From positions 1 to 64,000 of the forward strand of contig NZ_KB903218.1 in assembly GCF_000379625.1 (NCBI RefSeq): a stretch of 64,000 nt of DNA, given 5' to 3'. The position numbers and the translations under genes were made by a program. Positions 4,840-43,390 of the stretch are shown in pieces. The stretch comes from Actinomycetospora chiangmaiensis DSM 45062 (GTDB lineage Bacteria; Actinomycetota; Actinomycetes; Mycobacteriales; Pseudonocardiaceae). Every line of letters starts with the position of its first letter. The stretch's first letter is position 1. The notes beneath the pieces are model-generated. The model did not search any database. It saw only the letters and a list, made by a program, of their open reading frames with translations, and was not told where the DNA came from.

Positions 4840-5243
4840 GAGCTAGCACTCCTTGCGTGAGAAGGTCGACCTGCGCTCCGCTTAACTAGTAGTCTAGTCG
4901 TAGTTCAGCTAGCGCATAGAAGGAGGGTGCTCCAACCCGGTCAGGTTCACGAGTTGTCGTGCGACAGATACTTCTGCGGCAGTCCGGCCACTGTACAGAG
5001 GCTGAAGGTTCTCACCTGGAGCTGGCTGCGACCTTCTTCCAAACAAATCTTGCAAAAATTCTCGGCAGCTTGGCTGGGTTCGATATACTCCTGTTGTCTG
5101 AGGATTATGACTGCAAGGTGGATGCGTAGCATTGTGTCTATGCCGTCGTGCAATTCAGGCAGCATAGGGCAATAGATTCTTTTTGGCGTGCTGCTCTATT
5201 GGGTCAGAAAGACTTGTCGGGCATGTGAGAAAGCGCGGTTCTG
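4840..5243. other. Intergenic stretch between divergent acetyltransferase and cutinase genes
   Basis: About 400 low-GC bases with no supported gene. It must contain promoters for the two divergent genes. A 72-codon minus-strand open frame at 4947-5165 has a natural-looking composition but no recognisable domain and no good ribosome-binding site, so it is not called. It could be a gene remnant. Confidence 0.45.
5170..5201. promoter_or_regulatory. Inverted repeat upstream of the cutinase gene
   Basis: CAATAGA (5170-5176) and TCTATTG (5195-5201) form a perfect 7-base inverted repeat with an 18-base spacer containing a run of five T. It ends 42 bases before the cutinase start, so it could be an operator or an attenuator-like hairpin. 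No known regulator is implied. Confidence 0.3.
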
Positions 5244-10370: not shown

Positions 10371-10598
10371 GCCCCGGAGAGGGCTCTCAAGGTGGGCGCC
10401 GCAGGGATGCCGCTCGGGGGCACCGACACTGCGCTGGTCGTGCTCGGCTTCCTGGCGGTCCTCGTGCGGGTCCGGGCGCGTTGGGTCCGGGCCGACGCCC
10501 GGTAACCGAACGACGGCTCGTCCGGTCGGCGGCGACCGGTGGTTCGGAGTCGGGGCGGGCGGGAGCCGATATGCAGCTCGCGCATGCATAATGCAAGC

Positions 10599-10835
10599 AT
10601 GGCGACGTCGATCACGGTACGAGACGTTCCGGACGAGGTCCGGGACGAGTTGGCGGCCCGCGCGGCTCGTGCGGGACGGTCCCTGCAGGAGCACCTCAGG
10701 CGGGAGCTCATCGAGATGGCGCGCCGGCCGAGCGGTGAGGCGTTGCTGGAGCGCGTCCGCGCGCGGGTCGAGACCACGGGGACCCGTCTGGACGTGGAGA
10801 CGATCCTGAACCACCGCGACGCGGACCGGCGGTGA
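10599..10835 (+). CDS. vapB: FitA/VapB-type ribbon-helix-helix antitoxin
   Basis: A 78-residue antitoxin. The N-terminal ITVRDVPDEVRDELAARAA is the typical FitA/VapB DNA-binding segment. The C-terminal arm, ending RLDVETILNHRDADRR, would wrap the toxin. The ATG at 10599 starts exactly at the conserved MATSITV. The gene ends in GTGA overlap with the toxin start, the classic vapBC arrangement, and the complex would be expected to repress its own promoter. The same tail sequence recurs in a broken copy at 42,980. Confidence 0.9.
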   Translation: MATSITVRDVPDEVRDELAARAARAGRSLQEHLRRELIEMARRPSGEALLERVRARVETTGTRLDVETILNHRDADRR

Positions 10836-11239
10836 CGCTCGTCGTCGACGCGTCGGTTGTCGTGGCCGCGCTGATCGACGACGGCGAGGTCGGCCGATGG
10901 GCCCGTCCCATCCTCGCCCGTCGGGACATCAGCGCTCCGCACGTCATGGCGTTCGAGGTCGCCAACATCCTGCGGCGCGCTGCCCTCCGTGGCGACGTCT
11001 CCGACGATGTGGTGCGACTGGCGCACGCGGACCTGCTCGACACGGCGATCGAGTACGTGAGCTATGAGGTCGTAGCGCCCCGCGCCTGGGAACTGCGCGG
11101 CTCGGTGACGCTGTACGACGCTGTCTACGTCGCCCTTGCCGAGGCGTCGGACACCTCGCTCCTCACGCTGGACCTTCGTGTGGTCCGAGCACCCGGTCCC
11201 CGGTGTTCATTCCTCACTCCCTGGGATCCGCTGTCTTGA
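10832..11239 (+). CDS. vapC: VapC-type PIN-domain ribonuclease toxin
   Basis: A 135-residue PIN-domain toxin, expected to cut specific RNAs using Mg2+ when freed from the antitoxin. The acidic metal-site residues are in place: Asp6 in LVVDAS, Glu42 in AFEVANIL, Asp96 in LYDAVYVALAE and Asp114 in LLTLDLR. The GTG start overlaps the antitoxin stop. The open frame and full residue set suggest a functional pair. The RNA target cannot be told from sequence. Confidence 0.9.
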   Translation: MTLVVDASVVVAALIDDGEVGRWARPILARRDISAPHVMAFEVANILRRAALRGDVSDDVVRLAHADLLDTAIEYVSYEVVAPRAWELRGSVTLYDAVYVALAEASDTSLLTLDLRVVRAPGPRCSFLTPWDPLS

Positions 11240-29685: not shown

Positions 29686-29875
29686 CGCCACCCCCCTATG
29701 TTGCTTGCCGCCCCCGGGGGGCGAGCGTCCGTGCTGAGCCGTGGTGCACCCGGGCCCCCGGCGAGGACATCGACCACGACCGTGCGCCGTTAGTCCGGAC
29801 GCCCGAGCATGACCCGGATGGCCCATCCGGTCGCGGACGCGTTGGTCGACGATGTCGACCAACGGCAGGGGGCTC

Positions 29876-31192
29876 ATGGGTGGGGCGATGTCCGACGCGC
29901 AGGTGGCGGTCGGGGTGCGGGCGGTCGCGTTGGCGTCCGCCTTCCTCGTCCGCACGCTGCGCGACTCGCAGTTCCTGGCCACGGCGGCGGGCGAGACCGC
30001 GCCCGGCATCGTCGAGGCATCCACGGAGACGGCGGTCGTGGAGGGCGATCGCCGCGGCCGACTGAAGAGCCTGGCCCGGCGTGGGGGCGAGCTCGCCCGC
30101 CAGGGAGGCGAGTACGCCCGGCAGGGGCTCGACCGATGGGTCTCGACGCGTCCGGGCACTCCTGCCTGGAAATCGGCGAGCCGCGAGCAGCGATGCGATT
30201 GGTGGTTCGCCAACCTCGGGCGGGCGACCGCCGTGCTCGCGGCGCTCCCCGGGCTGACGGGGGCGGCCTCGGACCGGGTGCCGGTGCGGGAACTGCTGTC
30301 TGCGGCAGGGCAGGGGCTCCTCCTCGTGGCGATCGCCGTCGAGTACGGGATCGAGGACACGGAGGATCACGTGTCACTCATCGGCGAGGTTCTCTTCGGT
30401 CGCCGACTGGACCTCGCCGCCCCGCGCGATGCGGCCGTGGCCGCACAGGAGGCTGAGGCCCTCGCCGGAGGCGCGAAGCGTGCGGATTCGACCCGCCGGA
30501 CACAGGCCGCGGCGCTCGTCCGAATCGGCCGGACGCTGACGCAGCTCGAGGCGGAGCTCGACAAACGGCCGCAGGGACACCGGGGCCTGAAGTTGATGGG
30601 GTCGCTGCCGGGCGTCGGCGTGATCGGGCATTACAAGGGCGAGCGCCACGGGCTCGGCATCGTGTCCGACCGTGGGCGCGCATGGTGCGTCCAGCGCCTC
30701 GGCCGGCGGGCCTTCGGCGCTGCAGCGCCGTCGCCGACGAACCAGACCGAGCAGCCCGCGATGCCGTCAGCGCTCGTGCCACCGGCAGGGCCACGCGGCC
30801 CTCGGGTGATCGCGGGGGCGGCTTTCGCGGACCGCGTGGTGGCCCGTCGGGCTCTCAGCGAGCTCGCTGGCTCCGACTCGGCCCTGATCCAGGGGGCCGC
30901 CGTCGCCGCGTGGCTCACGCCGGGAGACGGCGTGCTCGAGGAGGTCGTGCTGGCGGTGACGCCGATCGACGTGCGGGTCGTCGGCCGAGCCGGGATCCGG
31001 CCGCGCCCTGCCGTGTGGACGTTCGCCCACCACCACCTCGCCCGCGACGTGGTGCAGTGGGCGGGCGGCCCGGTCGACTTCGCGGTGCAATTGCCCGACG
31101 GTCGCTGGCTCGGGATCCGGTTGATGAATCAGGACGACGCGGAAGCGGTACGAGCGGCCCGCGCGACGGCGAGGGCGGGCACGAATTCATGA
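29876..31192 (+). CDS. Hypothetical protein of about 438 residues
   Basis: Family not recognised. The N-terminal part has amphipathic helices and repeated ARRGGELARQGGEYARQG. A hydrophobic stretch (AAGQGLLLVAIAVEYGI) follows near residue 150. The middle has LMGSLPGVGVIGHYKGERHG, and the C-terminal third looks like a separate alpha/beta domain (VIAGAAFADRVVARRALSELAG and onward). Start ambiguous: ATG 29876 follows AGGGGG closely, and ATG 29888 follows GGGTGGGG. It is divergent from the sensor kinase and convergent with the CATRA-like genes. Confidence 0.6.
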   Translation: MGGAMSDAQVAVGVRAVALASAFLVRTLRDSQFLATAAGETAPGIVEASTETAVVEGDRRGRLKSLARRGGELARQGGEYARQGLDRWVSTRPGTPAWKSASREQRCDWWFANLGRATAVLAALPGLTGAASDRVPVRELLSAAGQGLLLVAIAVEYGIEDTEDHVSLIGEVLFGRRLDLAAPRDAAVAAQEAEALAGGAKRADSTRRTQAAALVRIGRTLTQLEAELDKRPQGHRGLKLMGSLPGVGVIGHYKGERHGLGIVSDRGRAWCVQRLGRRAFGAAAPSPTNQTEQPAMPSALVPPAGPRGPRVIAGAAFADRVVARRALSELAGSDSALIQGAAVAAWLTPGDGVLEEVVLAVTPIDVRVVGRAGIRPRPAVWTFAHHHLARDVVQWAGGPVDFAVQLPDGRWLGIRLMNQDDAEAVRAARATARAGTNS

Positions 31193-31265
31193 CCAGCTGG
31201 CCGTGCTCGGCTTCCTCGCAGTCCTGACCGGGTCCACGACCGGTAGAGCTCGAGACTGACCCCCA

Positions 31266-32873
31266 TCAGTCAGCCATGTCCGTCGGACACGGCTCCGTCG
31301 TGTTGCTGCGGACCAGGGCGCCCTTCGTGTCCGGAGGAGAGAGGTCCGAACGGTTCTCGCGCCCGCCCGCGCGGGACGCCGTCACGGCGGACACCAGCGC
31401 GATCAGTGCACCAACCCCGGCGCCGAGCCAGGACTCGTTCGACGGTGCGATTCGGCCGCTCAGCTCAGCCACGACGGACGCGACCGTCCAACCCACTCCG
31501 GCGCCGAGCAGTGTCGCGGCGAGCACCACGAGAGCCGTCGCCTGCCGTCGGCCGGTCCGGTTCCAGCTCCTCAGCACGAGGAGCGAGCTGAGCAATGCAA
31601 GGCATGTCAGGACGAAGACCACTGGCCCCTTGACCTGGTCCGGGACGGGAACTTTGTACTGGAAGGCCTGGATCGCGGCCAGCGCCATGAGCAGCGCGCT
31701 CACGACACCGGTGGCCGCGAGATTGATGCGCTCTCGTCGCAGCTGGAATTCCTCGCCGCGATCCTGGAGCGCCGACTGCAGGAGGCTGTCGGCCTCATCA
31801 GTGATGCTCCGTCCACGCTGAAGGCGCTCCCGCAGAGAGGCCTCCTCGACGCGGAGTTGTGCGCAGTGCCAGTCGGCGAGCGCTGAGTCGTCGGCGAAGG
31901 GGCCCCCCGGCTTTCTGATGTCCAGATAGGCGGCCATGTTCGCGGTGGTCACGCCGACGGCGGCGAGGAGTCGCTCCCGTTCGCCCAGCGCGGCGATCAG
32001 GCCGAACTCGTCCGCCTGGAGCGCCCGGACCCGGGCCGAGGCTCTGATCAGGCCGTCAGGGTCTGCGGCGTCGTCCTTGGCAAGCGGGCTGATGTGCTCC
32101 ACCAACGCACCGAGCGCCTGGTCGTTCTCGCGCAGCATCTGATGGAGGCCGGCCACGTCGGGACGACGCGATGCCAGGCCTCGCAAGGTCGCGGCGTGCA
32201 GGAGGTAGGACGCGAGAGGCGTCATCTCCGGAGTGCCACGACTCCAGGTCCAGGCACTGAGCTCTGCGTCGCGCGACTCCTTGGCGAGGACGACGAGGCG
32301 GCGGTGATTCTCGATGTCGCCACCCCCTCGTTCCGGCGCCGTCCAGACCGCGAACTTGCCCAGCCCTGCCGATCGCACGACGGTCCCGGTGGCTGTCCAG
32401 GCCGGATTCGCGGCCGACCCGTCCACCGCGGCACCGACACGCTCGCAGAGCTCCTCGTCGACGCTCAAGGGTCCCTTCGAGGAGACCCGGCCTTGCAGGA
32501 TGCGCGCGGCGCCGAGAAGGCCTACCCGGCGCGGGCCAACCAGCGTCTCCCAGTCTGACTCTGCCTGCTGCCAGCCTTTCGTCCCGTCGTTTCCGAACGA
32601 ACGCAGCACCCCGAGGACGAGGACGTCGTGGACCCGCCGCAGGACCACCTGGTGGAGCCCGACATCAGAGCGCTCGCGGAGGGCGATGATCCCCTGCTTC
32701 GGCTCGGCGGTGGTGTCGAAGTGCTCCGGCAGATCGTTCGGGTAAGCCCCTACCTGGTCCTCCAGACAGAGCTGTTCGACCGCATGGGTCCACAAGCACG
32801 CCGCCGCTGCCTTGTGGTCGACCAGCAGATAGGCGTAGCCGACGAATTCCTGACCGAAGAGTTCAGTTGGCAT
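31266..32873 (-). CDS. CATRA-type conflict-system membrane protein (tentative)
   Basis: A 535-residue protein. From memory it fits the family named CATRA (caspase and TPR repeat-associated) conflict-system protein: an N-terminal domain opening with FVGYAYLLVDHKAAAA, the SDWETLVGPRRVGLLGAARILQG block, a helical middle, and a C-terminal anchor of about four helices (NLAATGVVSALLMALAAI onward). ATG 32873 overlaps the upstream small gene by 11 bases. Role inferred: a membrane-tethered effector or sensor working with the small CATRA partner and the divergent CHAT protease. Family assignment needs a profile search. Confidence 0.65.
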   Translation of the reverse strand: MPTELFGQEFVGYAYLLVDHKAAAACLWTHAVEQLCLEDQVGAYPNDLPEHFDTTAEPKQGIIALRERSDVGLHQVVLRRVHDVLVLGVLRSFGNDGTKGWQQAESDWETLVGPRRVGLLGAARILQGRVSSKGPLSVDEELCERVGAAVDGSAANPAWTATGTVVRSAGLGKFAVWTAPERGGGDIENHRRLVVLAKESRDAELSAWTWSRGTPEMTPLASYLLHAATLRGLASRRPDVAGLHQMLRENDQALGALVEHISPLAKDDAADPDGLIRASARVRALQADEFGLIAALGERERLLAAVGVTTANMAAYLDIRKPGGPFADDSALADWHCAQLRVEEASLRERLQRGRSITDEADSLLQSALQDRGEEFQLRRERINLAATGVVSALLMALAAIQAFQYKVPVPDQVKGPVVFVLTCLALLSSLLVLRSWNRTGRRQATALVVLAATLLGAGVGWTVASVVAELSGRIAPSNESWLGAGVGALIALVSAVTASRAGGRENRSDLSPPDTKGALVRSNTTEPCPTDMAD

Positions 32874-33252
32874 GCCGGGCCGGTTGCTTCGTGGTGTCCG
32901 GCGGCACGGTAGGGCCAGCGGCCAGGAGCGATGCCAGGTCGGTGACGAGGGCCCGCACGGTCGGCGGTGCTTCGACGACGGGCTCTCGCCCGATGCCGGT
33001 CGCACGATGCGGGGTGGCCTCGGCGAGATCAGCGACGCCCTCGCGGAACTCCTCACGGTCGCCGCGTCGCGCGGCCGCCAGGGTGCGCGCGAGCGCGGCC
33101 TCCACCGACGCCCATCGCCTCGGACCGGCGGCCACGCCATCCAGTTCGCCGACCAGGGCCTGCAGTTCCACCTGCGCCGCAGGGTCGAGCCACATCGTCT
33201 CGCTGCGGGCGGAGTCGTCGCTCACGGAGCGCACCGTACTCGGTCGATTCAC
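32863..33252 (-). CDS. CATRA-associated small protein (tentative)
   Basis: A helical soluble protein of up to 129 residues. The segment WLDPAAQVELQALVGELDG, then RRWASVEAALARTLAAAR, then ATPHRATGIGREPVVEAPP matches my memory of the small partner of CATRA systems. The start is uncertain: GTG 33252, GTG 33225 and ATG 33195 are in frame, none with a strong ribosome-binding site. It is coupled to the large CATRA protein and divergent from the CHAT gene, with only about 65 bases between, so both directions probably share control. Confidence 0.65.
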   Translation of the reverse strand: MNRPSTVRSVSDDSARSETMWLDPAAQVELQALVGELDGVAAGPRRWASVEAALARTLAAARRGDREEFREGVADLAEATPHRATGIGREPVVEAPPTVRALVTDLASLLAAGPTVPPDTTKQPARHAN

Positions 33253-33317
33253 CCGAGGTGATGTCCCGCGGACGAGTGCAGTGGGCCATGATGTGCGACG
33301 GCAAGGGGGGAGGCGCC

Positions 33318-35189
33318 GTGCGCGGCGACGGGGGGAACCGGGGCGGCGACGGCCTCGATCAGGCGGTGAGGCAAGCGGAGAAGGCCGTGGGGGCGGCGTC
33401 CGCCGGGACGGAGGAGCATGTCCTGCTCCTCGTCGGTCTCGCGATCGCGCTCATGCAACGCGCAGAGGCCACGGCACGGTTCGACGACTACCGCGCGGCC
33501 CACGACCGGCTAGAGGAGGCGCGCTCCCGGACCTCGGGACCTCGGGATCCGGTCCGCCCGGTGATCGACGGTGCGCTTGCCGATGTCCGGCGGTTCCTCG
33601 GAGACGGAGACGGCGCCTGCGCGGCGGCCGTGGAGGGTCTGCGCGCGCAGGTCTGGCAGGTCCTGGCCCACCATGCACAGGCTGGTCTCCGGCACGCGGT
33701 ACGGGATATCGGCGCTGACGCCGTCCACGCCGCGCGGATCTGCCTCGGACACAGCGACTCCCGTCGCGCCGTGACGGCGCTCGACCTGGGCCGTGGTGCG
33801 GCGCTGTTCGCCGCAACGGCGACCGGCTCGCTCGAGCAGCTCCTGGGGTCCTCCGGCGACCTGGACCTCCTCGCGCGCTGGCGCACCGCGGTCGCCGCCG
33901 GGCCGGGGAACCTGCCCGCGGGGCTGCGACGGGAGGTGTTGGCCGCTGCGTCGGCCGTGGACGATGGGGCTTCCGTGCTCGACCCACCCGGGGTGGGGGA
34001 AATCGGCGACGCCCTGCAGGCAGTCGGGGCGGATGCGCTGGTCTATCTCCTTCCGGGGGACGGATCGATCATCGGATACGCGGTCGTGGTGTCGGCCGCG
34101 GGTCGTGCCGGCTACATCGGACTCCCGAACCTGTCGGTGGCCGCCTTCCCGGTGATCGAGAGGTACTTCGCTGCGGCCGCACGGCGGGTGCCGAGCGGCG
34201 ACGACACCGCGGCGGACGAATTCGCCGGTTCCCTCGAGCCGCTCTGCCGCTGGGCATGGGATGCCGCGCTCCGTCCGCTCGTCCAGCAATACCTCCCCGG
34301 ACTGCCGCCCCCGGATCGAGAGCGGCCTCGACGGGTCGTCCTGGTTCCGATGGGCGATCTCTCTCGCGTGCCCTGGGCGGCTGCTCGCGACGAGAAGGGC
34401 ACCTACGCCGTCGAGAGCCTCGCGATCACGCAGGTGGCATCGGCCCGGATGCTCTGCCGGACGGCGTCGCTCGCGCCGGTGCCGCTCTCCCGGACCGGTC
34501 TCGTGGTGGCGGACCCCGATCTCGGGGCGCTGAGTGCTGAGCCCCAGCTGCGACACGCGCGCGCCGAGGGGTACGCCATTCAGCGGGTCTTCTATCGAGG
34601 AGCGCGCTTTCTCGGCCGACGCCCGTCCGGCCCGAGTCCCTCCGGGGCGGGTACCGCTACAGAGGTCCTGGAGTGGCTCGATTCCGACGATCCGGCGGAG
34701 GGCACCGTCGCTCATCTGGCCTGCCACGCCGTGGTCGACGCCGTGGGGCCTAAGCCGACCGCCCACGTCGTCCTCGCGGCCGGGAGCAGCCTGCACGCCG
34801 AGGACCTGGTCGGTCGAACGACCGCTGGGCCCGGGCGGGACATCGGGCTCGTAGTTCTCTCGGCATGCCGGAGCGGCGGTTCAGTCCTCGGGCACGACGA
34901 GGCCTACAGCTTGGCCTCCGCCCTGCTGGCTCGGGGTGTGCGTGCGGTGCTGTGCACCCAGTGGCCGGTCTCCGACGTGGTGGCCCCTCCTCTGATGTTC
35001 ATGGTCCATCACTACCTGCATCACGATCAGCTGCCCGTGTGGGAGGCGCTACGGCTGGCCCAACTGTGGGCTCTGGACCGGGCGAGGTCCCTACCCGACG
35101 CCATGCCGGCGCCTCTGCAGGTACAGGCCGCCAGCGCGGTCCTGGCGCGGCCGACGGCCTGGGCGTCGGTCGTGCACTGGGGTCGGTGA
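33318..35189 (+). CDS. CHAT-domain (caspase-like) protease with helical repeat N-terminus
   Basis: A 623-residue protein with a helical, TPR-like N-terminal region (residues about 10-160) and a C-terminal CHAT peptidase domain (about 330-623). The catalytic dyad is complete: His470 in AHLACHAVV and Cys517 in VVLSACRSGGS. RVVLVPMGDLSRVPWAA near 340 is the usual CHAT strand-turn, and GVRAVLCTQWPVSD follows the active site. GTG 33318 follows GGGGGGAGG. In CHAT/caspase-like conflict systems such proteases cleave a partner or effector on a signal. The next gene encodes a CHAT-like protein without the dyad, and the divergent pair is CATRA-like. Confidence 0.88.
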   Translation: MRGDGGNRGGDGLDQAVRQAEKAVGAASAGTEEHVLLLVGLAIALMQRAEATARFDDYRAAHDRLEEARSRTSGPRDPVRPVIDGALADVRRFLGDGDGACAAAVEGLRAQVWQVLAHHAQAGLRHAVRDIGADAVHAARICLGHSDSRRAVTALDLGRGAALFAATATGSLEQLLGSSGDLDLLARWRTAVAAGPGNLPAGLRREVLAAASAVDDGASVLDPPGVGEIGDALQAVGADALVYLLPGDGSIIGYAVVVSAAGRAGYIGLPNLSVAAFPVIERYFAAAARRVPSGDDTAADEFAGSLEPLCRWAWDAALRPLVQQYLPGLPPPDRERPRRVVLVPMGDLSRVPWAAARDEKGTYAVESLAITQVASARMLCRTASLAPVPLSRTGLVVADPDLGALSAEPQLRHARAEGYAIQRVFYRGARFLGRRPSGPSPSGAGTATEVLEWLDSDDPAEGTVAHLACHAVVDAVGPKPTAHVVLAAGSSLHAEDLVGRTTAGPGRDIGLVVLSACRSGGSVLGHDEAYSLASALLARGVRAVLCTQWPVSDVVAPPLMFMVHHYLHHDQLPVWEALRLAQLWALDRARSLPDAMPAPLQVQAASAVLARPTAWASVVHWGR

Positions 35190-35236
35190 GTGGCCGTGAG
35201 GACGACACGGACGACGACACCACGCGGAGGAGATCG

Positions 35237-37330
35237 ATGACCCAGGACCGGCTCGCCCAGCTTCGCGCCGACGTCGCGCGCCAATCCGGCGCCGCGCGCG
35301 TCCGTCCGTTGACCGAGCTCGGTCGGGAACTGTCAATGGAGTACTGGCGCGTGGGACCAGGCCAGGCCGCAGCGCAGCCCGTGCTCGACGAGGCCGTCGA
35401 GGTCCTGGGCGAGGCCTACGACCGACTCGAGCCGGGCGAGGTCATGACGGCTCGAACGGCAGCCATGCTCGGCTGGCTGCTCGGCACGCGGACCTTGGCC
35501 CACGGTGGCAGCCCCGCCGACCGCGACCGGGCGATCCCGTTGCTGGAGGAGGCGACGGACGCCGAGTTCCTCGAGTTCCAGCTGAGCCTCATGGCCCGCT
35601 TCGTCCTCGGCCAGCTTCTGCTGTTCCGGTCCCTCCACCGTCTCCAGTCCGGCGGCACGAACCCGATGAGTCTCCTGGGCGGGGGATCGCCCGGTGGCGA
35701 CGCCGACTCCGCCCGTGCGATGACCTGCTTCCGCGAGGTCGCGGCCGATCCGGGCGCTCCGCGCGAGGCCACGGAGGCTGCCCACACCATGATCGGGCTC
35801 GCCGAGATGGTGCAGACCCTGACCGGCGGCGGGGGCATGGACCTCGGACGCATCATGACCGCGTTCGGGAAGCTCCAGGATCTGCAGCAGCAGATGTCGA
35901 ACGGAACACTCGGGACGCGGCTCGGAGCCGACGCCGACCCGTTCCGGATGGGCGATGTCCTGGCGCAGATGGACCCGACGGAGCGTCCGCTCCACACCGT
36001 GATCGAGGACTCCGCCACCGAGCCGGAGGAGACCCCTTCGCCACCGTCCCCCGCGCCGCCTCCGTCCGCACCGACGTCCGCACCGACGTCGACCACGACG
36101 GTCGCCGATCTCCGCAGGGCGTTCCGCGAAGCCGTCCCTACCGAAGCTCTCCTGATCGCGCTGGTAGAGGGCGTGGGGATGCCATCCGACATGGCGATGA
36201 TCGATCGTCTCGTCGCTCGCGGCCAAGCCGTCCTCGATAGCGGTGAAGCCAACGTCTCTGACCGCCTCCTGCACGCTGCGGCGCTCTACCGCCGTTCGTT
36301 GATCGACCCGGACGACGGGTGGGGCCACGGCGCGCCGTCGCCCGATCTGGACGCCGCGGTGGACGAAATCGCGTCCGTCGACCTCGTCGGCGCCCCGTCC
36401 GACCTCGTCGCCCGAGTGCTCCGTCTCGCTCACCGGATCAGTCCGCGCGAGGGGCATCGCGAGGTCATGGCCCGTCTTGCCGCGCAGTACCGGTCGATCG
36501 GAGGCGACCTCCGAGCAAGAGGTGTCGACGGGCTGGTGTACGACCTATCCGACGGCCTCCTCGTCTATGACCTCCAGTCCGCCCGCCTCGAGTGGCGGGA
36601 CAGCGCCGGGCTCCCCACCCGGAGCCTCGTGATCGGGTCGCGGCGACCAGCGGGCGCCTCGGGCGTCATCTCGGTCGTACCGAGCGCCCGTGAGGCGATG
36701 CGGCTGGCCGAGCTGCATCGGCGAGGGCCTGCCGGAGCGCCGGTGTTCGTCGCCAATCCGAGGGACGACCGTCCGCAGGCGGGAATCGACACGATGGTGC
36801 TCCGCCGCACCTTCTATCCCGGCTCGCTCGGACTCGGGCGCACCGTGGAGAACATCGACGGGGCCGGCACGCGCGACGACGTGCTGGCCCGATTCGAGGC
36901 GCCTCTGCTGCACCTCGACTGTGGTGTCACGCCTTCGGGGGAACTCGAGCTCGCAGGGCCGACACTGCTCGCGCCCGCCGACATCGCGTCTGCCTCCGGG
37001 GCGGATGCCGGCATCGTCGTCCTCCCTCACGGCGCGGCGTCCACCGCGGCACTTTCGCAGGCGTTCCTCGCGGCGGGCTTCGCCCACGTCCTCGCGTTCA
37101 CGACCCGACTGCCCGACGACGTCGCGTCGCTAGTCACCTTCATGTTGCACTCAGAACTCGTCGACCGGAGAGTGCCACCCGCGCAGGCGGTGCACCACGT
37201 TCGACAGTGGTTGCTCGACCCCGCCCGAGCGGTTCCCGAACACCTGCCCGCGTGGTACCAGGGAACAGCCGCCGACGCCGACCTCGCCGATCTGTCGATC
37301 GCCGACGCCCTGGTCCACCACGGCGTGTGA
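35237..37330 (+). CDS. CHAT-like protein lacking catalytic residues, with helical repeats
   Basis: A 697-residue protein. The N-terminal region (about 1-260) is helical and TPR-like, with a Met/Gly-rich insert. A Pro/Thr/Ser linker (265-288) leads to a second helical part and a C-terminal CHAT-fold domain (about 430-697). The positions expected for the dyad read LLHLDCGV (residues 557-564, Cys for His) and IVVLPHGAAS (593-602, no Cys), so protease activity is unlikely. ATG 35237 follows GGAGGA, 47 bases after the active CHAT gene. It may be a regulatory pseudo-protease partner or a cleavage substrate. Confidence 0.72.
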   Translation: MTQDRLAQLRADVARQSGAARVRPLTELGRELSMEYWRVGPGQAAAQPVLDEAVEVLGEAYDRLEPGEVMTARTAAMLGWLLGTRTLAHGGSPADRDRAIPLLEEATDAEFLEFQLSLMARFVLGQLLLFRSLHRLQSGGTNPMSLLGGGSPGGDADSARAMTCFREVAADPGAPREATEAAHTMIGLAEMVQTLTGGGGMDLGRIMTAFGKLQDLQQQMSNGTLGTRLGADADPFRMGDVLAQMDPTERPLHTVIEDSATEPEETPSPPSPAPPPSAPTSAPTSTTTVADLRRAFREAVPTEALLIALVEGVGMPSDMAMIDRLVARGQAVLDSGEANVSDRLLHAAALYRRSLIDPDDGWGHGAPSPDLDAAVDEIASVDLVGAPSDLVARVLRLAHRISPREGHREVMARLAAQYRSIGGDLRARGVDGLVYDLSDGLLVYDLQSARLEWRDSAGLPTRSLVIGSRRPAGASGVISVVPSAREAMRLAELHRRGPAGAPVFVANPRDDRPQAGIDTMVLRRTFYPGSLGLGRTVENIDGAGTRDDVLARFEAPLLHLDCGVTPSGELELAGPTLLAPADIASASGADAGIVVLPHGAASTAALSQAFLAAGFAHVLAFTTRLPDDVASLVTFMLHSELVDRRVPPAQAVHHVRQWLLDPARAVPEHLPAWYQGTAADADLADLSIADALVHHGV

Positions 37331-37370
37331 CGATCGCGCGAGTCTGATCAACAGACATCCGCCACGACAG

Positions 37371-37394
37371 CCGGCCGCTGCTTCGCCCGGCCGG
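37371..37394. terminator. Hairpin between convergent CHAT and AAA operons
   Basis: CCGGCCG (37371-37377) and CGGCCGG (37388-37394) form a 7-base all-GC stem with a 10-base loop, placed between two stop codons of opposite operons. Confidence 0.6.
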
Positions 37395-37401
37395 CCGGCG
37401 G

Positions 37402-38949
37402 TCAGCCGAGAACCACCCGACGCCCCTGTCCGCGGAACGTCATGCCGGTTTCGACAGGTTTGCCAGAGGCCGGGATCGCTCGGTCGGCGAACTGCCGGAC
37501 CTCCTCGATCCGCTCCGGCGCGGAGCGCGCTAGCGGCACGACGTTTCCGAAGACACTGCCCATATACCCGAGATCGACCGGACCGTTCCGGCGAATCTCC
37601 TCGCAGGCGATCTCGGCCACGGCCGCTTGGATGTCCGAGCCGGCGAAGCCCTCGCTCAACACGACGAGATCGTCGATAGCGTCCGGGTGTCGCGTCGTCC
37701 ACAGGTGCTTGTCCCAATAAATCTGGATGATCTCGCGGCGTTCATCCGCCTGTGGCAGGTCGACGAAGAACATGTCGTCGAACCGTCCCCGCCGGAGGAG
37801 TTCTTGCGGCAGGCTCCGTACGTCGTTCGCGGTGGCGACCACGAAGACACGCGCGGTTGCCTCCTGGAGCCAGTACAGGAACTGTCCGACCAGTCGCGCC
37901 GTGACGCCGGTCGACTCCGAGCCGGACCCAGCGAGTCCCTTCTCGATCTCGTCGATCCAGAGCACGCAGGGGGCCACGGAGTCCGCAGTGGCCAGCGCAT
38001 CACGCAGCTGGCGCTCCGACTGACCGACGTACTGACCGAACACCGCGGAGAGGTCGAGCCGGTAGAGCGGGAGCTCCCAACTCGTCGCGATCGCCTTGGC
38101 CGACAGGGACTTGCCGCAGCCGGGGACGCCGACGAGCAGGACGCCCCGCGGGGGCCGAAGGCCCCGGTCGCGGAGATCCATCGTGAGCAGCGGGCGCTTG
38201 TCGTCGAGCCAGCGGCGTAGGCCCGCCAGCCCACCGAGCCGGTAGTCGGAGTCGCGGAGCGCCACGCGTTCGATCCCGGCGAGGTCGCCGAAGATGGAGT
38301 CCTTGGCGCTGCGCAGCTCGGTGAGGTCCTGCCGGGTCACCGACCGTTTCGCCACCAGGGTGGACAGGATGTTCAACGCCTCGGTCTTCGTGACGCCCGT
38401 CAGGATCGTCGCGGCCTGCTCGAACTCACGTTCACCCCACTCCATCACCGGCAGCACCTGCCGGTATTGCTCCATGAAGGAGCGGCACTCGGCCAGCATC
38501 TCCTCGTAGTCGGGAACGTCGAGGACGATCGACATCCCGAGCCGTTGCAGTGGCACCCAGACCGGGTCAGCGGTGATCACGATGACGCTGCCGCCGTGTT
38601 CCTCGGCAAGCGTCGCGAGGTCGACGAATCGCCGTGAGGTCTCGTTGTCGTCGCTGAGGTGCTGGACGTCGGTGAAGACGATCGTGAGGTTCTGCCGGGC
38701 CTGGAACTGCTGGCTCGCGAGCTCCAGCGCGCCGAGGAGCGACTTGTCGTCCGAGACCGATGCGCCGGTCGCGAGGAGACGAAGACCCTGGCTGAGCGTG
38801 TGGAGCAGGATGTCGAGGTTGCGGCCGCGCGCGAGCTCCCCGAGGATCTCCTGCACCCGGGACCGCTCGCTGCTGCGGACGGACACGAAGGGGATCCGGG
38901 CGAGCAGGTAGCGCTCGAGCTTTGCTCGCGTCTCGAGTCCGTTGGGCAC
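37402..38949 (-). CDS. Ycf46-like AAA+ ATPase
   Basis: A 515-residue AAA+ ATPase. The N-terminal domain (about 1-230, starting ERYLLARIPFVSVRSSERSR) resembles Ycf46-type ATPases. The single AAA module has Walker A GVPGCGKS (274-281), Walker B VLWIDE (329-334), sensor-1 ATAN (372-375), arginine-finger region RRGRF (386-390) and the lid motif SEGFAGSDIQAAVAEIA. It ends in GRRVVLG, nearly the same tail as the upstream protein. GTG 38949 follows AGGAG, eight bases after the upstream stop. It probably remodels or gates partner proteins of the operon; those partners are inferred. Confidence 0.9.
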   Translation of the reverse strand: MPNGLETRAKLERYLLARIPFVSVRSSERSRVQEILGELARGRNLDILLHTLSQGLRLLATGASVSDDKSLLGALELASQQFQARQNLTIVFTDVQHLSDDNETSRRFVDLATLAEEHGGSVIVITADPVWVPLQRLGMSIVLDVPDYEEMLAECRSFMEQYRQVLPVMEWGEREFEQAATILTGVTKTEALNILSTLVAKRSVTRQDLTELRSAKDSIFGDLAGIERVALRDSDYRLGGLAGLRRWLDDKRPLLTMDLRDRGLRPPRGVLLVGVPGCGKSLSAKAIATSWELPLYRLDLSAVFGQYVGQSERQLRDALATADSVAPCVLWIDEIEKGLAGSGSESTGVTARLVGQFLYWLQEATARVFVVATANDVRSLPQELLRRGRFDDMFFVDLPQADERREIIQIYWDKHLWTTRHPDAIDDLVVLSEGFAGSDIQAAVAEIACEEIRRNGPVDLGYMGSVFGNVVPLARSAPERIEEVRQFADRAIPASGKPVETGMTFRGQGRRVVLG

Positions 38950-38957
38950 TGCGTCTC

Positions 38958-39470
38958 CTAGAGGATCACCCGGCGTCCGCGAGGGGTGCTCGAGGGGCCG
39001 GCCGGAGGGGGAAGGACTGGCGCAGCGGCCAGAGCACGGCGGAGGTCGTTGTCGAGGACCGCGGCGAGCTGCCCCGGTGGGACGAAGCTCTGTCGAGCTG
39101 AATGGTCCAGGTTTTCCTGCGCCGACCGCACCATCGAGATGAGCGCGCGCCGGAGCTCATCGCGCACCGCCTCGGGCAGACGAGCGTCGTCGGCAAAGGC
39201 GATCAAGGGCGCCAGACGCGCCCGCGCGGAGATCATCGCGGCGGCGAGAGCCGTGGGGTCGGTCACCGCCCCGACGTCGCGCTCGAGGACCCGGGCCCAC
39301 CGGACCGCACGGGTCTCGAAGGCTCGCGCGACCCGCTCGATGACTCTCGACTGCATGAACGGGCCCATGGCCTCGTCCACGGCCGGCAGGTGTAACGACG
39401 GGAGATCGGAGCCGTCGCCGAAGGCCTCGAGCCACGCGGCCCACGCGGAGTACTCGCCGTCCGAGATCAC
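38958..39470 (-). CDS. Helical protein ending in an RRVIL tail
   Basis: A 170-residue all-helical soluble protein of no recognised family, with a Pro/Ser linker and the C-terminus RGRRVIL. The AAA+ ATPase encoded next ends GRRVVLG, so a shared tail may be a recognition or tethering signal. GTG 39470 was chosen because it overlaps the stop of a 58-codon gene (GTGA). A longer form from GTG 39521 would overlap that gene substantially. Confidence 0.65.
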   Translation of the reverse strand: MISDGEYSAWAAWLEAFGDGSDLPSLHLPAVDEAMGPFMQSRVIERVARAFETRAVRWARVLERDVGAVTDPTALAAAMISARARLAPLIAFADDARLPEAVRDELRRALISMVRSAQENLDHSARQSFVPPGQLAAVLDNDLRRALAAAPVLPPPAGPSSTPRGRRVIL

Positions 39471-39643
39471 GGGCCGTTCCGGTGCCGACGTACGAACTCG
39501 GCAGGTGGAAGCAGGTCCCACCCCGGCAGTTCGACAGCGATCTGTCCACGCGGCCGGGGTACCTCCGTGGCCAGGGAATCCGGTCCGCGGCCGGAGTGGC
39601 GTCCGCGGTCGCCGCCGTCGGGAGCCACCATCGGGTTCGGCAT
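39467..39643 (-). CDS. 58-residue peptide coupled to both neighbours
   Basis: A short gene supported by context. Its ATG overlaps the upstream stop (TGATG) and its TGA overlaps the downstream GTG. The first half is Gly/Arg/Pro-rich and probably disordered; the second half (IAVELPGWDLLPPAEFVRR) looks like a conserved helical motif. It could be a docking peptide for the AAA+ ATPase or membrane partner. Function unknown. Confidence 0.55.
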   Translation of the reverse strand: MPNPMVAPDGGDRGRHSGRGPDSLATEVPRPRGQIAVELPGWDLLPPAEFVRRHRNGP

Positions 39644-41367
39644 CAGAGCATCACCTCACGTCGCTGATCCGGGGGAGCCGCCGAGTACGCATCGCGGTCG
39701 AGGCGGCCGATGAACTGCTGGAAGTGCCGGGCGAACGCCATCTCCCGTTGCCATACCTGCTGCCAGTCGTGCACCTCGGCGATGGCACCCTTCAAGGTCG
39801 CGAGAGCTCTGGAACGCCGGAGCTCGCCCTGCTGGCGGATGAGCTCGCGCTGCCTCGGGAGCTGCCCGGCCGCGTAGAAGGTGTAACCACCGCACCCGAG
39901 GGCCACTAGGAGGCAGAAGATCAGACCACCCGGCGACCCGTTCACGGCCGCCAGAATCCCGAAGAACAGGAACAGGGCGCCGATCACCCCGCAGATCAGA
40001 GCGGCACCGGGTAGCGAGACCCCGCGCAGGGACTGCTCGGTCTCGCGATCGATGTGACCGGCCAGGGACGTGGCCAGTGACTGCTCGGTCGCCTGCCCGT
40101 CGACCCGTCCGGTCCATCCCTCGAGGGCGAGGTCGACGCCGGAGGGCATGGCCCGGAGGGCGTCGGCCTCCAGCCTGCCGTCCGCCTGCACCACCCAGTC
40201 CTTTGCCATCGCGACCGTCAACAGCTGCGTGCTGTGAGACGCCCCGACCTGTTCGGGGAAGAACGCGGCGTTCGTGACCAGGGTCAGGAAGTCGACGGTG
40301 TCCTCCTGCGCGGGCGCCTCGTCGTTCTCTGCCTGCGCTGCCGCCCGGTCGTCCCCATTGTGGTCGATCACGAGTTGGAGATGCCTCGCCTCGCGGCGGA
40401 GGGGTCGTTCTTCGTCGTCGAAGTTGGTTACCAGGTTGTCGAGGATCCGGTCGACCCGGCCCCGCAGATCGGGGTCTTGATGAGCAGGTCCGGCGAACAG
40501 GCGTGTGAAGCGGTCGTACGCATTGCGGTGGACCGTGGCGCGCTGGAACAGATCCTGGAGTTGCGGCCACGTCGGACTGACCTGCGGGAGGATGGACATC
40601 GACGGTTCGGGGCCGCCCCGACCGCCGTCGAGCAGCCGCGCCCACCGCTGGACCTGGTTCTCCACGATCTCCCGGTCGTCGCTCATCTGCTCGAACCAGG
40701 TGTCCATCGACCTGCGCACGAGCGGTTTCGTCTCGACCCCGAGTGCGCCGGTCGCCATGGCGTCGAGCACCGTCGTGAGTTCACCGGACATGGACCAGGG
40801 GTCCTGCCGCGCCAGGTACTGATCGAGCCAACGATTCGCTGCGGCGCCCCTCCCGTACCGACGAAGCGTCAGGGCATAGAACAACGTCGTCTTGTCGCCG
40901 TCCCGACGGAGCGCTTCTGCCAGGGCGGTTTCGGCGAGTCGGCGATCGTTCCCGATCCACGCGGCCAGCGCGACGAGTCCGGGGGCCAACCAGTACCTGG
41001 GGGTGGAGAGCATGAGCTCCTCGGAGGCCCCGTACATCGTCTCCTGGGTGACGACGCCGACGTCGAGGGCCTGCAGAATCCCGGTCGCGTGTCTCCGCAC
41101 CGTCGCGTGATGCCCGAATTGCGTCTCCAGCTCCTGATTAACTCTAATGATCTTGGTCTGCGCGAACTGGAGGTTCTTGGCGAGTTCGTTGAGGCGCCGG
41201 AACTCCTCGAACTCGGCCGCCAGTCGCAGGAGGTCCCCGCGGGTGGCGTCGGTGACGTTGACGACCTGGTTCACCGTGTTCCCGAGCTGCACCTGGAGGA
41301 GCTCGAGATTTCCCAGGGCATTGTTGATCCTGCTCAGGTCCGCCCGTGGCAGTTGAACGTTCGACAT
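39643..41367 (-). CDS. Coiled-coil membrane protein of the AAA operon
   Basis: A 574-residue protein of unknown family. The N-terminal 90 residues are a long heptad-like helix (DLLRLAAEFEEFRRLNELAKNL). Then comes a helical solenoid-like domain, an acidic linker near 345-355, and two transmembrane helices close together (about 457-505). The C-terminus is a charged helix. ATG 41367 overlaps the stop of the upstream gene. It may assemble as a membrane scaffold for the AAA+ ATPase. Confidence 0.7.
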   Translation of the reverse strand: MSNVQLPRADLSRINNALGNLELLQVQLGNTVNQVVNVTDATRGDLLRLAAEFEEFRRLNELAKNLQFAQTKIIRVNQELETQFGHHATVRRHATGILQALDVGVVTQETMYGASEELMLSTPRYWLAPGLVALAAWIGNDRRLAETALAEALRRDGDKTTLFYALTLRRYGRGAAANRWLDQYLARQDPWSMSGELTTVLDAMATGALGVETKPLVRRSMDTWFEQMSDDREIVENQVQRWARLLDGGRGGPEPSMSILPQVSPTWPQLQDLFQRATVHRNAYDRFTRLFAGPAHQDPDLRGRVDRILDNLVTNFDDEERPLRREARHLQLVIDHNGDDRAAAQAENDEAPAQEDTVDFLTLVTNAAFFPEQVGASHSTQLLTVAMAKDWVVQADGRLEADALRAMPSGVDLALEGWTGRVDGQATEQSLATSLAGHIDRETEQSLRGVSLPGAALICGVIGALFLFFGILAAVNGSPGGLIFCLLVALGCGGYTFYAAGQLPRQRELIRQQGELRRSRALATLKGAIAEVHDWQQVWQREMAFARHFQQFIGRLDRDAYSAAPPDQRREVML

Positions 41368-41831
41368 CAGCTTGCCCCCATGACGGTGATCGTGCCATCG
41401 GCTCGGACGCAGACCAGTCGGTCCGGATAGACCTCGATGCAGAGGTACGTGTCGGTGCGCGTCAGCGGGCGCGCCTCCTGAAGCTGGCCGGGCAATGACT
41501 CGCCGACGCGGAAGTGTTCGATGATCGACCCCTCCAGCCCGAGCGTGTGCGCTTCGAACGGAGGGCCGAGGAAACAGTGGCTGACGATCCCGACCGGGAT
41601 AGCGGACCAGCCTCTGGTGAACTCGTCGTTGATGGCGCCGGTGATCGCCGCCGTCTCCACGGGTGTCAGAGTTGCCGACGCGTCGAGCTGTGCGACCGCG
41701 TCGAGGTAACGCCGGCTCCGCGCGTCGGTCAGGAGGCGCCCGCTGGGTCGACCGCTCGATGTGACTCTCGGTGGGGCCGCCGACAGCCGTCCACGACTGC
41801 CGCCGTCGAGCTCGATCCGTGGTCGGGGCAT
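41367..41831 (-). CDS. Small soluble protein of the AAA operon
   Basis: A 154-residue protein. About 40 disordered Arg/Ser/Pro-rich residues are followed by a compact domain ending in YLCIEVYPDRLVCVRADGTITVMG, which suggests beta strands. The ATG at 41831 starts one base after the upstream stop, and its end overlaps the next start, so it is fully operonic. No family recognised. Confidence 0.6.
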   Translation of the reverse strand: MPRPRIELDGGSRGRLSAAPPRVTSSGRPSGRLLTDARSRRYLDAVAQLDASATLTPVETAAITGAINDEFTRGWSAIPVGIVSHCFLGPPFEAHTLGLEGSIIEHFRVGESLPGQLQEARPLTRTDTYLCIEVYPDRLVCVRADGTITVMGAS

Positions 41832-41832
41832 G

Positions 41833-42735
41833 TCAGCACGCCCGTTTCGTCGTCGCGCCCTTGGCCGGGGTGTCGATCACGGTCTGGCCGTTGACGACCG
41901 CCAGCGGCCACGAACTGGTCCAGCAGATTCGGCTCACCGGCAGGTCCGGGGGCGCGTCGGTGACGGCCTGGTTGCTGACGAACGACAGGTCGACCAGTCG
42001 GTTGCCGTCGCTGCCGGTCCGGGTGCGCACCGCGATGACGTTGCTGTCCACCGTCGTCGCGTAGTTGCGCAGCCAATCGTTGCGCGTGATCGACGTGGCC
42101 CGTCGCGGGGTCACTGTCGCGCTCCACGCGTCGAATTCGTTGGCGTTGATGGCCGTGAAGTGTCGGCTGAGCAGGTCGACGACCTCGGGCGCTGCCGGAT
42201 CGGCGGCCATGCCGGCGCCAGTCGTGACCAGAACCGTCGATGCCGCGGGAGGGGGGATCGGTGCGACGGGCGACGAAATGGCGGTGATCGACGACGGTGA
42301 GTACGACCCGGCCGTGGTCGGCTGCGTCGCGCCCTGCGTGCCGCTGCCGTTCGACCTCGTCGTGGAGAGCACGAACAGCCCGGCAACGAGCAGCGCGAGC
42401 GTGACGGCACCGCCGATGATCAGGTAGCTCCGCGGTGGGGCCGTCCTGGACCCCGCAGGTAGAGCGGCCGACGGGCTCGGGGTGATGACGCTGGGCGAGT
42501 ACGGCGCGACGCGCTGACGGGGAACCGCGCCGACAACTGTGTCGACCGGCGCGACCCGGCGCGTACCGGTCGTCGGTGTTGCGGTCCTGACGGCGGTATC
42601 GCCCAAGATGTCGACGTCTGGCGCCGGGGCCGCTGAAGGCTCGGCCACCTGCCCCGAAGAGGGGCCGCCGAGGACCCAGATCGGTCGCGACCGCGCCGCC
42701 GGCGAATCGTCCGGTGGGCTTCCCCCGCTGCTCAT
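41833..42735 (-). CDS. Single-pass membrane protein with NTF2-like exported domain
   Basis: First gene of the AAA operon, 300 residues. A disordered cytoplasmic part (about 1-100) precedes one transmembrane helix (YLIIGGAVTLALLVAGLFVL), a Ser/Thr/Pro linker, and an extracytoplasmic domain. Its SRHFTAINANEFDAWSATV and later SRICWTSSWPLAVVNGQTVID suggest an NTF2/SnoaL-like fold, with a lone C-terminal Cys. ATG follows AGGGGGA. It probably senses an outside cue for the operon. A TAATAAC stretch near 42797-42803 is a possible -10 element. Confidence 0.65.
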   Translation of the reverse strand: MSSGGSPPDDSPAARSRPIWVLGGPSSGQVAEPSAAPAPDVDILGDTAVRTATPTTGTRRVAPVDTVVGAVPRQRVAPYSPSVITPSPSAALPAGSRTAPPRSYLIIGGAVTLALLVAGLFVLSTTRSNGSGTQGATQPTTAGSYSPSSITAISSPVAPIPPPAASTVLVTTGAGMAADPAAPEVVDLLSRHFTAINANEFDAWSATVTPRRATSITRNDWLRNYATTVDSNVIAVRTRTGSDGNRLVDLSFVSNQAVTDAPPDLPVSRICWTSSWPLAVVNGQTVIDTPAKGATTKRAC

Positions 42736-42979
42736 TCATCCCCCTGTGATCACGGCCAGCCGTGCATCCTCAGCATCGTTGACCGGCGTGATCGTTATTA
42801 CTGCTCGTTGGACCTCACCTCGATCTTTCGCCCGTTTGCAGTAGCGCCGCGGTGTGATGCTGTCGTCCGCCAATCCCCGACGTGATCATTCGGCGACCGC
42901 GGGGAGGCCGATGCGGACCCCTGAGAACCTTTCTTTCTCACCGGGTACTGGGTCTGGCGGAGACCTCGGAGAGATCCCT

Positions 42980-43390
42980 CTGGACGTGAGGACGATCTTC
43001 AACCACCGCGACGCGGGCCGTCCTCGACACGAGTCTGCTGATCGGGGCCGATGTCGCGGAGCTCGAGGGAGAGCTGGCATCAGCACGATCTCCCTCGCCG
43101 AGCTCCACTACGGCGTGCTCGTGGGCCGTGACCGGGCGATTCGCGGTGAGCGCCTCCGGCGGCTGACGGCGATCCGCCGGCTCTTCGACGCGATCCCGGT
43201 CGACGACCGGGTCGCCACGAGCTACGGGCTGCTCGCCTCGGCCGTGGCCGAGGTCGGTCGCAGTCCTCGGCCACGGAGCATGGATCTGCTCATCGCGGCG
43301 ACGGCCCACGCCCACGAGGACCGCCTCTCCACCCGCAACGCCGCCGACCTCGTCGGTCTGGAGGACGAGCTCGAGATTGTGCCCTGCTGA
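42980..43390 (+). pseudogene. Decayed vapBC locus (antitoxin tail fused to frameshifted VapC)
   Basis: The antitoxin remnant is only LDVRTIFNHRDAGR, nearly identical to the tail of the intact antitoxin at 10785-10835. It runs straight into a PIN-toxin start (VLDTSLLIGADV) in another frame, with the normal stop and start missing. Near 43077 a single missing base shifts the toxin frame. From there a natural VapC-like sequence continues (ISTISLAELHYGVLVG, then RSMDLLIAATAHAH, then LSTRNAADLVGLE) to the stop at 43390. Acidic PIN residues are still readable, so decay is recent. Confidence 0.8.

What the first reader, a model, noticed from the sequence alone, without database searches (positions are those of the whole stretch)
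31266..37330. Divergent CATRA-like pair and CHAT/pseudo-CHAT pair sharing one short control region
Two minus-strand genes (small helical protein; larger protein with C-terminal helices) resemble CATRA conflict-system components. Only about 65 bases away two plus-strand genes encode an active CHAT protease and a catalytically dead CHAT-like partner. Seen: the arrangement, the His470/Cys517 dyad, the membrane anchor. Known: CHAT proteases act in conflict and cell-death systems. Inferred: the four form one regulated system.
Basis: partly seen in the sequence, partly recalled or inferred. Interest (0 to 1): 0.85.

Follow-up and report, generated by a model that had tools for sequence, protein, structure and literature searches.

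The report
Bacterial caspase-like conflict-system gene block
An actinobacterium carries, in a stretch its tested close relatives lack, a predicted self-defence gene set of a known but little-studied kind (CATRA), here with a membrane-embedded tail, an active-looking caspase-like protease and a catalytically dead relative of that protease beside it.

Summary
31266-32873(-) is CATRA (PF20269 5e-34, PF20270 1e-18; NF038357 1.5e-77) with a four-helix membrane tail; 32863-33252(-) is CATASP (5e-15); 33318-35189(+) is CHAT (8e-44) with His470/Cys517; 35237-37330(+) is its relative with Gly at both catalytic positions.

CATRA-CHAT linkage is real: 21 of 42 CATRA matches have a CHAT within 12 kb (about 0.7 expected), and this genome's only detected CATRA, CATASP and CHATs lie together. 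Other CATRAs carry conflict-type domains after CATRA-C, so the tail is probably a membrane effector.

Three results weaken "these four are one system". The CHAT plus dead-CHAT pair was found beside no other CATRA (72 loci). The window CHAT groups away from CHATs of three sister tetraspan-CATRA loci (AU p 3e-17); its two nearest relatives have no CATRA in the stretches fetched, and one is followed by a partner like the dead protein's first half. The accessory block (about 31.2-43.0 kb) also holds an AAA operon that in one other genome lies near a same-clade CHAT.

Verdict: a new variant of the known CATRA kind, probably with a swapped-in protease module. Mechanism inferred.

The parts
31266..32873 (-). 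CATRA protein, 535 aa: CATRA-N + CATRA-C + four-helix membrane tail (helices starting near residues 383, 416, 447, 481); start ATG 32873 or 32876
   Evidence: Pfam PF20269 5.3e-34, PF20270 1.4e-18; NF038357 1.5e-77; hydropathy; model pLDDT 83.5
32863..33252 (-). CATASP (CATRA-associated small protein), 129 aa; start uncertain; overlaps the CATRA start
   Evidence: Pfam PF20271 4.8e-15; starts
33253..33317 (.). 65-base divergent spacer between CATASP and CHAT, containing the CHAT ribosome-binding site; regulatory role not shown
   Evidence: promoter scan negative
33318..35189 (+). CHAT protease, 623 aa, catalytic His470 (codon 34725-34727) and Cys517 (codon 34866-34868)
   Evidence: Pfam PF12770 7.9e-44 (run from 33273); alignment
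35237..37330 (+). Catalytically dead CHAT-like protein, 697 aa: N-terminal half (residues 1-363 matched alone in G492) + pseudo-CHAT; Gly563 and Gly599 at the His/Cys positions
   Evidence: PF12770 1.2e-5, 25.4 bits against cut-off 24; BLASTP to CHAT 5e-14
37402..38949 (-). AAA ATPase, 515 aa, CDC48-like AAA core after an N-terminal region of about 260 aa; convergent with the dead CHAT gene
   Evidence: PF00004 2.3e-30; close homolog in G486, 3.7e-228
38958..39521 (-). Small protein of the AAA operon ('SM'), no Pfam match; start uncertain (39521 or 39470)
   Evidence: close homolog in G486, 2.7e-32
39643..41367 (-). Protein with two predicted C-terminal membrane helices ('CC'), 574 aa, no Pfam match over its cut-off
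   Evidence: close homolog in G486, 4.3e-166
41367..41831 (-). Small protein at the head of the same operon, 154 aa, no Pfam match
   Evidence: homolog in G486, 1.4e-32 (run on a shorter start)
31200..43000 (.). Accessory block (approximate ends): no long DNA match among the listed matches in the 14 congeners searched (longest listed inside: 259 bases); flanking DNA conserved in some of them

Best explanation
This is a CATRA-type predicted conflict (immune or suicide) system with a membrane effector and an unusual protease module. Shown by sequence: CATRA, CATASP, an intact CHAT protease and a degenerate CHAT-like partner lie together in an accessory block. Inferred: CATRA-N/C with CATASP holds the four-helix membrane tail in an inactive state. 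A trigger sensed by the N-terminal regions of the CHAT and its dead partner activates the CHAT, the dead partner acting as scaffold or brake by pairing with it. The CHAT then cleaves CATRA or CATASP, freeing the membrane tail to damage or depolarise the membrane and stop the infected cell. Also inferred: the CHAT plus partner module replaced an older CATRA-linked CHAT.
For: Curated profile matches. The only detected CATRA, CATASP and CHATs of a 97.6% complete genome lie within about 6 kb, and no C14 caspase was found. 21 of 42 CATRA matches have a CHAT within 12 kb and 27 of 42 a CHAT or C14; about 0.7 with a CHAT is expected by chance. Of 35 CATRA proteins scanned (window included), 18 also match EAD1, 5 GT4-conflict, 5 CAP12/PCTIR TIR, 3 PNP_UDP_1, 1 trypsin; in 10 of 10 that I chose for domain maps the extra domains follow CATRA-C, so the tail is an exchangeable effector slot. 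Of 62 CATRA frames, the 8 with at least three predicted membrane helices have a CHAT within 8 kb in 7 cases (window included), the other 54 in 31. P. oroxyli (G021) joins a tetraspan CATRA to a CHAT of the window's own clade. The block has no long listed match in 14 congeners searched.
Against: 15 of 42 CATRA matches have neither CHAT nor C14 within 12 kb (4 of these lie within 2 kb of a contig end), so CATRA beside no such protease is not rare. No relative of the dead CHAT was found beside another CATRA. The window CHAT and the CHATs of three sister tetraspan-CATRA loci are not one clade (AU p 2.9e-17); its two nearest relatives (G492, Embleya) have no CATRA in the 19.5 and 21.9 kb read. The tail follows CATRA-C as one continuous predicted helix (325-406), with no obvious cleavable linker. 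I have no cleavage, interaction, phage or expression data. The promoter scan was negative. PADLOC gave nothing for CATRA, CATASP or the dead CHAT and only BovA at E 0.047 for the CHAT.
Confidence: 0.48

Rival explanations
1. Two neighbouring but separate modules in a variable region: a CATRA/CATASP pair of its own, and a CHAT plus dead-CHAT module that works with the convergent AAA operon.
For: CHAT tree. G492 has a CHAT (7e-116) followed at once by a partner like residues 1-363 of the dead CHAT, with no CATRA in the 19.5 kb read. G486 has close homologs of the AAA operon in order, about 2.9 kb from a same-clade CHAT on the same strand, two other genes between. 15 of 42 CATRA matches have no CHAT or C14 within 12 kb. 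In G001 the corresponding flanks enclose about 38 kb of other genes, so the site is variable.
Against: This genome has no other detected CHAT or C14; tetraspan CATRAs have a CHAT nearby in 7 of 8 cases; P. oroxyli pairs this CHAT clade with CATRA.
Confidence: 0.34
2. One large system of eight or nine genes: CATRA/CATASP effector, CHAT/dead-CHAT protease and AAA operon as an ATP-dependent threshold switch, analogous to the AAA chaperone cores of published ternary systems.
For: All lie in one accessory block; the AAA operon sits near this CHAT clade in two genomes; MoxR and FtsH AAA switches are a theme of such systems (passages of PMC7159879).
Against: Only one other genome links the AAA operon to a CHAT. 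AAA matches in other CATRA loci are much weaker (best 9e-19). No CATRA is seen in the 19.5 kb of G486 scanned for it (L146).
Confidence: 0.12
3. The dead CHAT is merely a decaying duplicate with no function.
For: Very long branch (2.87 against a median of 0.55) and a sister placement with CHAT not rejected (p 0.405); not found beside other CATRAs.
Against: Its 697-codon frame is intact, with codon-position GC like neighbouring genes, and its N-terminal half has a relative in the same place in G492.
Confidence: 0.06

Closest known systems
CATRA conflict systems (Pfam PF20269/PF20270/PF20271; [quoted passage not shown] the latter is not held)
   Same: CATRA-N, CATRA-C, CATASP and a caspase-like (CHAT) protease together
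   Different: Tetraspan membrane tail, CHAT from a mostly CATRA-free clade (as sampled), dead CHAT partner, adjacent AAA operon. Whether the describing authors had seen such variants could not be checked.
Bacterial gasdermin plus caspase-like protease (passages of PMC9079055)
   Same: Protease next to a membrane-acting protein; proposed protease-released membrane damage
   Different: CATRA tail is four predicted alpha-helices on a stalk, with no gasdermin profile match; cleavage not shown
Craspase TPR-CHAT and Csx30 (abstract of PMC9729208)
   Same: A CHAT protease kept off until a partner senses a trigger
   Different: A dead CHAT partner in place of the CRISPR effector gRAMP (no search for CRISPR parts was made)
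Pseudo-orthocaspases (abstract of PMC6426788)
   Same: Bacterial caspase homologs that lost the His-Cys dyad
   Different: Those are p20 caspases with Tyr/Ser; here a CHAT with Gly/Gly encoded beside an active-looking CHAT
SAM-AMP-activated CorA-type effector of type III CRISPR (seen only in the search listing)
   Same: Membrane effector of CorA type in immunity; the CATRA model's best structural neighbours are CorA/MRS2
   Different: No CorA profile match; profile-profile comparison negative

Membership tests
CATRA protein | CATRA-N and CATRA-C domains above curated cut-offs | tested here: met
   118.3 bits (cut-off 27) and 68.4 (24.6); NF038357 261 bits (cut-off 90)
CATRA conflict system | CATASP encoded next to CATRA | tested here: met
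   55.7 bits (cut-off 29), overlapping gene
CATRA conflict system | Caspase-like or CHAT protease in the neighbourhood | tested here: met
   PF12770 150.7 bits (cut-off 24), His and Cys present
CATRA conflict system | TPR protein or TPR repeats (from the family name) | tested here: inconclusive
   N-terminal half of the dead CHAT predicted helical (low overall confidence); no TPR Pfam match at E<=1 in the four proteins
CATRA conflict system | Effector domain in the C-terminal slot | tested here: inconclusive
   Tetraspan tail shared with several genomes; effector role inferred
CATRA conflict system | Proteolytic activation and defence activity | not testable with these tools
   needs experiments
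CHAT protease | CHAT domain with His-Cys dyad, first protein | tested here: met
   His470, Cys517
CHAT protease | His-Cys dyad in the second protein | tested here: not met
   Gly at both positions
CorA/MRS2 channel family | Sequence homology and GMN motif after TM1 | tested here: not met
   No CorA Pfam match at E<=1; hhalign probability 0.6% and 0.2%; no GMN in the window CATRA (motif recalled, seen as invariant in alignment A5)
CorA/MRS2 channel family | Fold: cytosolic alpha/beta domain, long stalk helix into TM1 | tested here: inconclusive
   Foldseek ranks 1-10 are CorA/MRS2, but best E 2e-3 (none at E<=0.001) and TM about 0.2
Gasdermin | Gasdermin profile | tested here: not met
   no gasdermin family among Pfam matches at E<=1 for the eight proteins scanned

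The most novel reading that the evidence does not exclude
A protease-gated membrane channel: CATRA with the tetraspan tail is a CorA/MRS2-like stalked channel, kept shut by CATASP and opened by a CHAT whose activity is set by a dead CHAT partner, a bacterial counterpart of the caspase-8/cFLIP pairing (comparison recalled).
Probability: 0.13. Interest if true: 0.78.

Novelty: new variant of a known kind. Interest (0 to 1): 0.52.

Why it matters
CATRA systems are named in profile libraries, but my searches of the held library turned up only two papers that mention them, each once. This locus gives a compact test case: one candidate protease, one candidate membrane effector and a naturally dead protease partner, in one genome with no other CHAT or C14 match. 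If the dead CHAT controls the live one, it would show pseudo-protease control of a bacterial death protease. The tetraspan tail, found in CATRAs of several genera, reaches no Pfam cut-off in the window protein.

Tried and rejected
Shared regulatory region: the promoter scan found nothing, so the 65-base spacer is reported only as a spacer. The upstream gene 29852-31192(+) as part of the system: rejected, since it has a close homolog in congener G001 (1.9e-164). CorA homology: the structural hint was tested by profile-profile comparison against six CorA proteins (of seven CorA loci fetched; the unannotated Streptomyces one was left out) and failed. Pseudo-CHAT structure: model too poor (pLDDT 51, two sequences); its Foldseek list, which includes TPR-CHAT chains, is not used as evidence. 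Recurrent dead CHATs: of 88 CHAT domains gathered, both residues are changed in 2 (window; L190/L204, with no CATRA, CATASP or second CHAT in its 19.5 kb) and His is Tyr in 2 (L042, L043), so a general active-dead pairing rule is not supported. Exact four-gene order elsewhere: not found in the loci examined. Known defence system: PADLOC matched the AAA core to IetA models (best 5.5e-22, with weaker mad8 and TRIP13) and the CHAT to BovA at 0.047.

Limits of counts. The 42 CATRA matches are those with two second pieces of the same gene dropped; two are below the family cut-off (G323, G021:C37:65260) and some are fragments. Of the 24 C14 rows I put 14 into the script; I checked the other 10 against the CATRA places: none is within 12 kb. 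The 72 loci hold some of the same genomes twice. In one search my up/down label is wrong for genes that overlap CATRA (printed 'down'), so its printed 'divergent' list is incomplete: L066 also has CHAT upstream on the opposite strand with an overlapping CATASP. The CHAT tree background was partly chosen by similarity to the window CHAT or dead CHAT (L140-L149), which favours non-CATRA neighbours; the single-clade test (a quick tree) used 49 of the 88 rows, took only the first 30 further CATRA-linked rows, and its groups were named after the first tree was seen. One search scored at most 14 candidates per genome; the match lists were cut. On this check the odds were moved slightly (main reading 0.50 to 0.48, separate modules 0.32 to 0.34), because I had called CATRA without a nearby protease unusual and 15 of 42 show that it is not.
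Full report
What is there. The window lies on contig 2 of a 5.86-Mb genome, 97.6% complete. A genome counted as the same family (G021) has a contig of the same length, with CATRA at the corresponding place, as Pseudonocardia oroxyli, so the organism is very probably a member of Pseudonocardiaceae (inference). Four genes are confirmed: CATRA 31266-32873(-), CATASP 32863-33252(-), CHAT 33318-35189(+) and a CHAT-like gene 35237-37330(+). CATRA passes both Pfam cut-offs and the NCBIfam cut-off. The second aligns to its C-terminus at 30% identity (E 5e-14) and has Gly in place of His and Cys; in a set of 88 CHAT domains 84 have His and 86 Cys at these columns.

CATRA tail. Hydropathy gives four helices in the last 150 residues or so, and the AlphaFold model (27 sequences, pLDDT 83.5, pTM 0.70) gives an alpha/beta N-domain, a helical part, an 82-residue helix running from CATRA-C into TM1, and three more long helices at the membrane positions. 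In 35 CATRA proteins scanned, other domains found are EAD1 (18), GT4-conflict (5), CAP12/PCTIR TIR (5), PNP_UDP_1 (3) and trypsin (1); in the 10 for which I asked for positions, all lie after CATRA-C. The C-terminus is therefore an exchangeable effector slot, and a membrane domain fills it here.

Distribution. CATRA-N was found in 3 of 61 relatives including the window genome, and in none of the 17 congeners in that set; in 26 of 393 genomes of the class, the window's included, 25 of them over the cut-off. Of 42 CATRA matches gathered from these two calls, 33 have CATASP, 21 a CHAT, 8 a Peptidase_C14 and 27 either protease within 12 kb; 15 have neither, 4 of them within 2 kb of a contig end. 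About 0.7 with a CHAT would be expected by chance if genes were scattered (clustering of conflict genes would raise this). Of 62 CATRA frames, those with at least three predicted membrane helices have a CHAT within 8 kb in 7 of 8 cases, the rest in 31 of 54. The co-occurrence refuter is half met: CHAT recurs beside CATRA, but no relative of the dead CHAT was found in 40 and 32 CATRA loci.

Where the protease came from. In a tree of 88 CHAT domains the window CHAT and the dead CHAT fall in a 13-member clade (support 0.997) in which 1 of the 11 other members is CATRA-linked, that of P. oroxyli; the nearest are G492 and an Embleya plasmid (support 1.0), with no CATRA in the 19.5 and 21.9 kb read. 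Forcing the window CHAT together with the CHATs of three sister tetraspan-CATRA loci (L040, L098, L099) is rejected (p 2.9e-17), while a sister relation of CHAT and dead CHAT is not (p 0.405); the dead CHAT has a branch five times the median (quick tree, 49 rows, groups named after the first tree). In G492 the CHAT is followed at once by a 485-aa protein matching residues 1-363 of the dead CHAT, with no match reported to its CHAT-like half; in a search of 80 family genomes this was the only other match listed to that half (candidates capped at 14 per genome). The CHAT plus partner pair is thus seen as a module of its own, and the dead CHAT domain joined to it was seen only here.

The block is larger than four genes. 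DNA matches to the 14 congeners searched (of 17; the three least complete left out) stop near 31.1 kb and resume near 43.0 kb; in between the longest match in the listed output, which was cut, is 259 bases. In G001 the two flanks enclose about 38 kb of other genes, so the site is variable. The gene upstream (29852-31192) has a close homolog in G001 and belongs to the flank, not the block. Inside the block, convergent with the dead CHAT, lies an operon of a small protein, a two-helix membrane protein, another small protein and a CDC48-like AAA ATPase. In the listed output of 61 relatives, near-full-length AAA matches outside this genome were only two, at 34% identity, and the membrane protein was found in none of 120 other genomes of the order beyond one 54-residue match. 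All four have close homologs in the same order in G486 (a family member that gave no match in that sample and so was not in it), about 2.9 kb from a CHAT of the window's clade on the same strand, with two other genes between. So the CHAT may be tied to the AAA operon as well as, or instead of, CATRA.

Structural hint. Foldseek with the CATRA model gives CorA and MRS2 magnesium channels at ranks 1-10, but the best E is 2e-3 (none at 0.001 or below), with TM-scores near 0.2 and large rmsd. Profile-profile comparison with a six-member CorA alignment gives no support, so membership is not claimed; a stalked-channel way of working remains open.

Mechanism. Shown: gene content, intact and lost catalytic residues, an exchangeable effector slot, accessory status, linkage statistics. 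Inferred: CHAT cleaves CATRA or CATASP, the dead CHAT scaffolds or restrains it, and the membrane tail is the executioner. The continuous stalk helix gives no obvious cleavage linker, which counts against a gasdermin-style release and favours gating or loss of CATASP inhibition. I hold the CATRA-plus-CHAT reading at 0.48, separate neighbouring modules at 0.34, and the full eight-or-nine-gene system at 0.12.

Literature. [quoted passage not shown] PMC12657218 uses CATRA once, in the legend of a distribution figure (passage); PMC7159879 does not use the name. The describing paper (10.1128/JB.00365-20, identifier recalled, as Burroughs and Aravind 2020) is not held. The searches (20 of 467 papers listed, off-topic; 15 of 16 listed) showed no experimental study of CATRA among the listed papers; subscription papers are mostly missing from the library. 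PMC9729208 and PMC6426788 were seen as abstracts with outlines, PMC9079055 as passages, and the SAM-AMP/CorA papers only as a search listing.

Noticed in passing
window 37402-41831: Rare operon (small protein, two-helix membrane protein, small protein, CDC48-like AAA ATPase), conserved in order in G486, three of its four proteins without a Pfam match over a cut-off.
   Followed up: partly
L042:4284-7874 and L043:1-1512: CHAT proteins convergent with CATRA genes in two genomes have Tyr in place of the catalytic His while keeping the Cys.
   Followed up: no
L204:9173-10759: Another CHAT with both catalytic residues changed (Ala, Ser), with no CATRA in the 19.5 kb read around it.
   Followed up: partly
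window 41833-42735: 300-aa predicted protein, apparently with one membrane segment and a proline-rich region (judged by eye), in the accessory block upstream of the AAA operon; no Pfam match.
   Followed up: partly
window 10584-11239: FitA-like antitoxin and PIN-domain toxin pair, with homologs in congener G001.
   Followed up: partly
window 2001-6000: Low-GC stretch (about 55% against about 70% or more in most of the window) carrying glycosyltransferase-like and acyltransferase-like ORFs, probably horizontally acquired (functions judged by eye).
   Followed up: no
L099:890-2376: Saccharothrix deserti CATRA appears split into two overlapping frames; frameshift, assembly error or gene-caller effect not resolved.
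   Followed up: no
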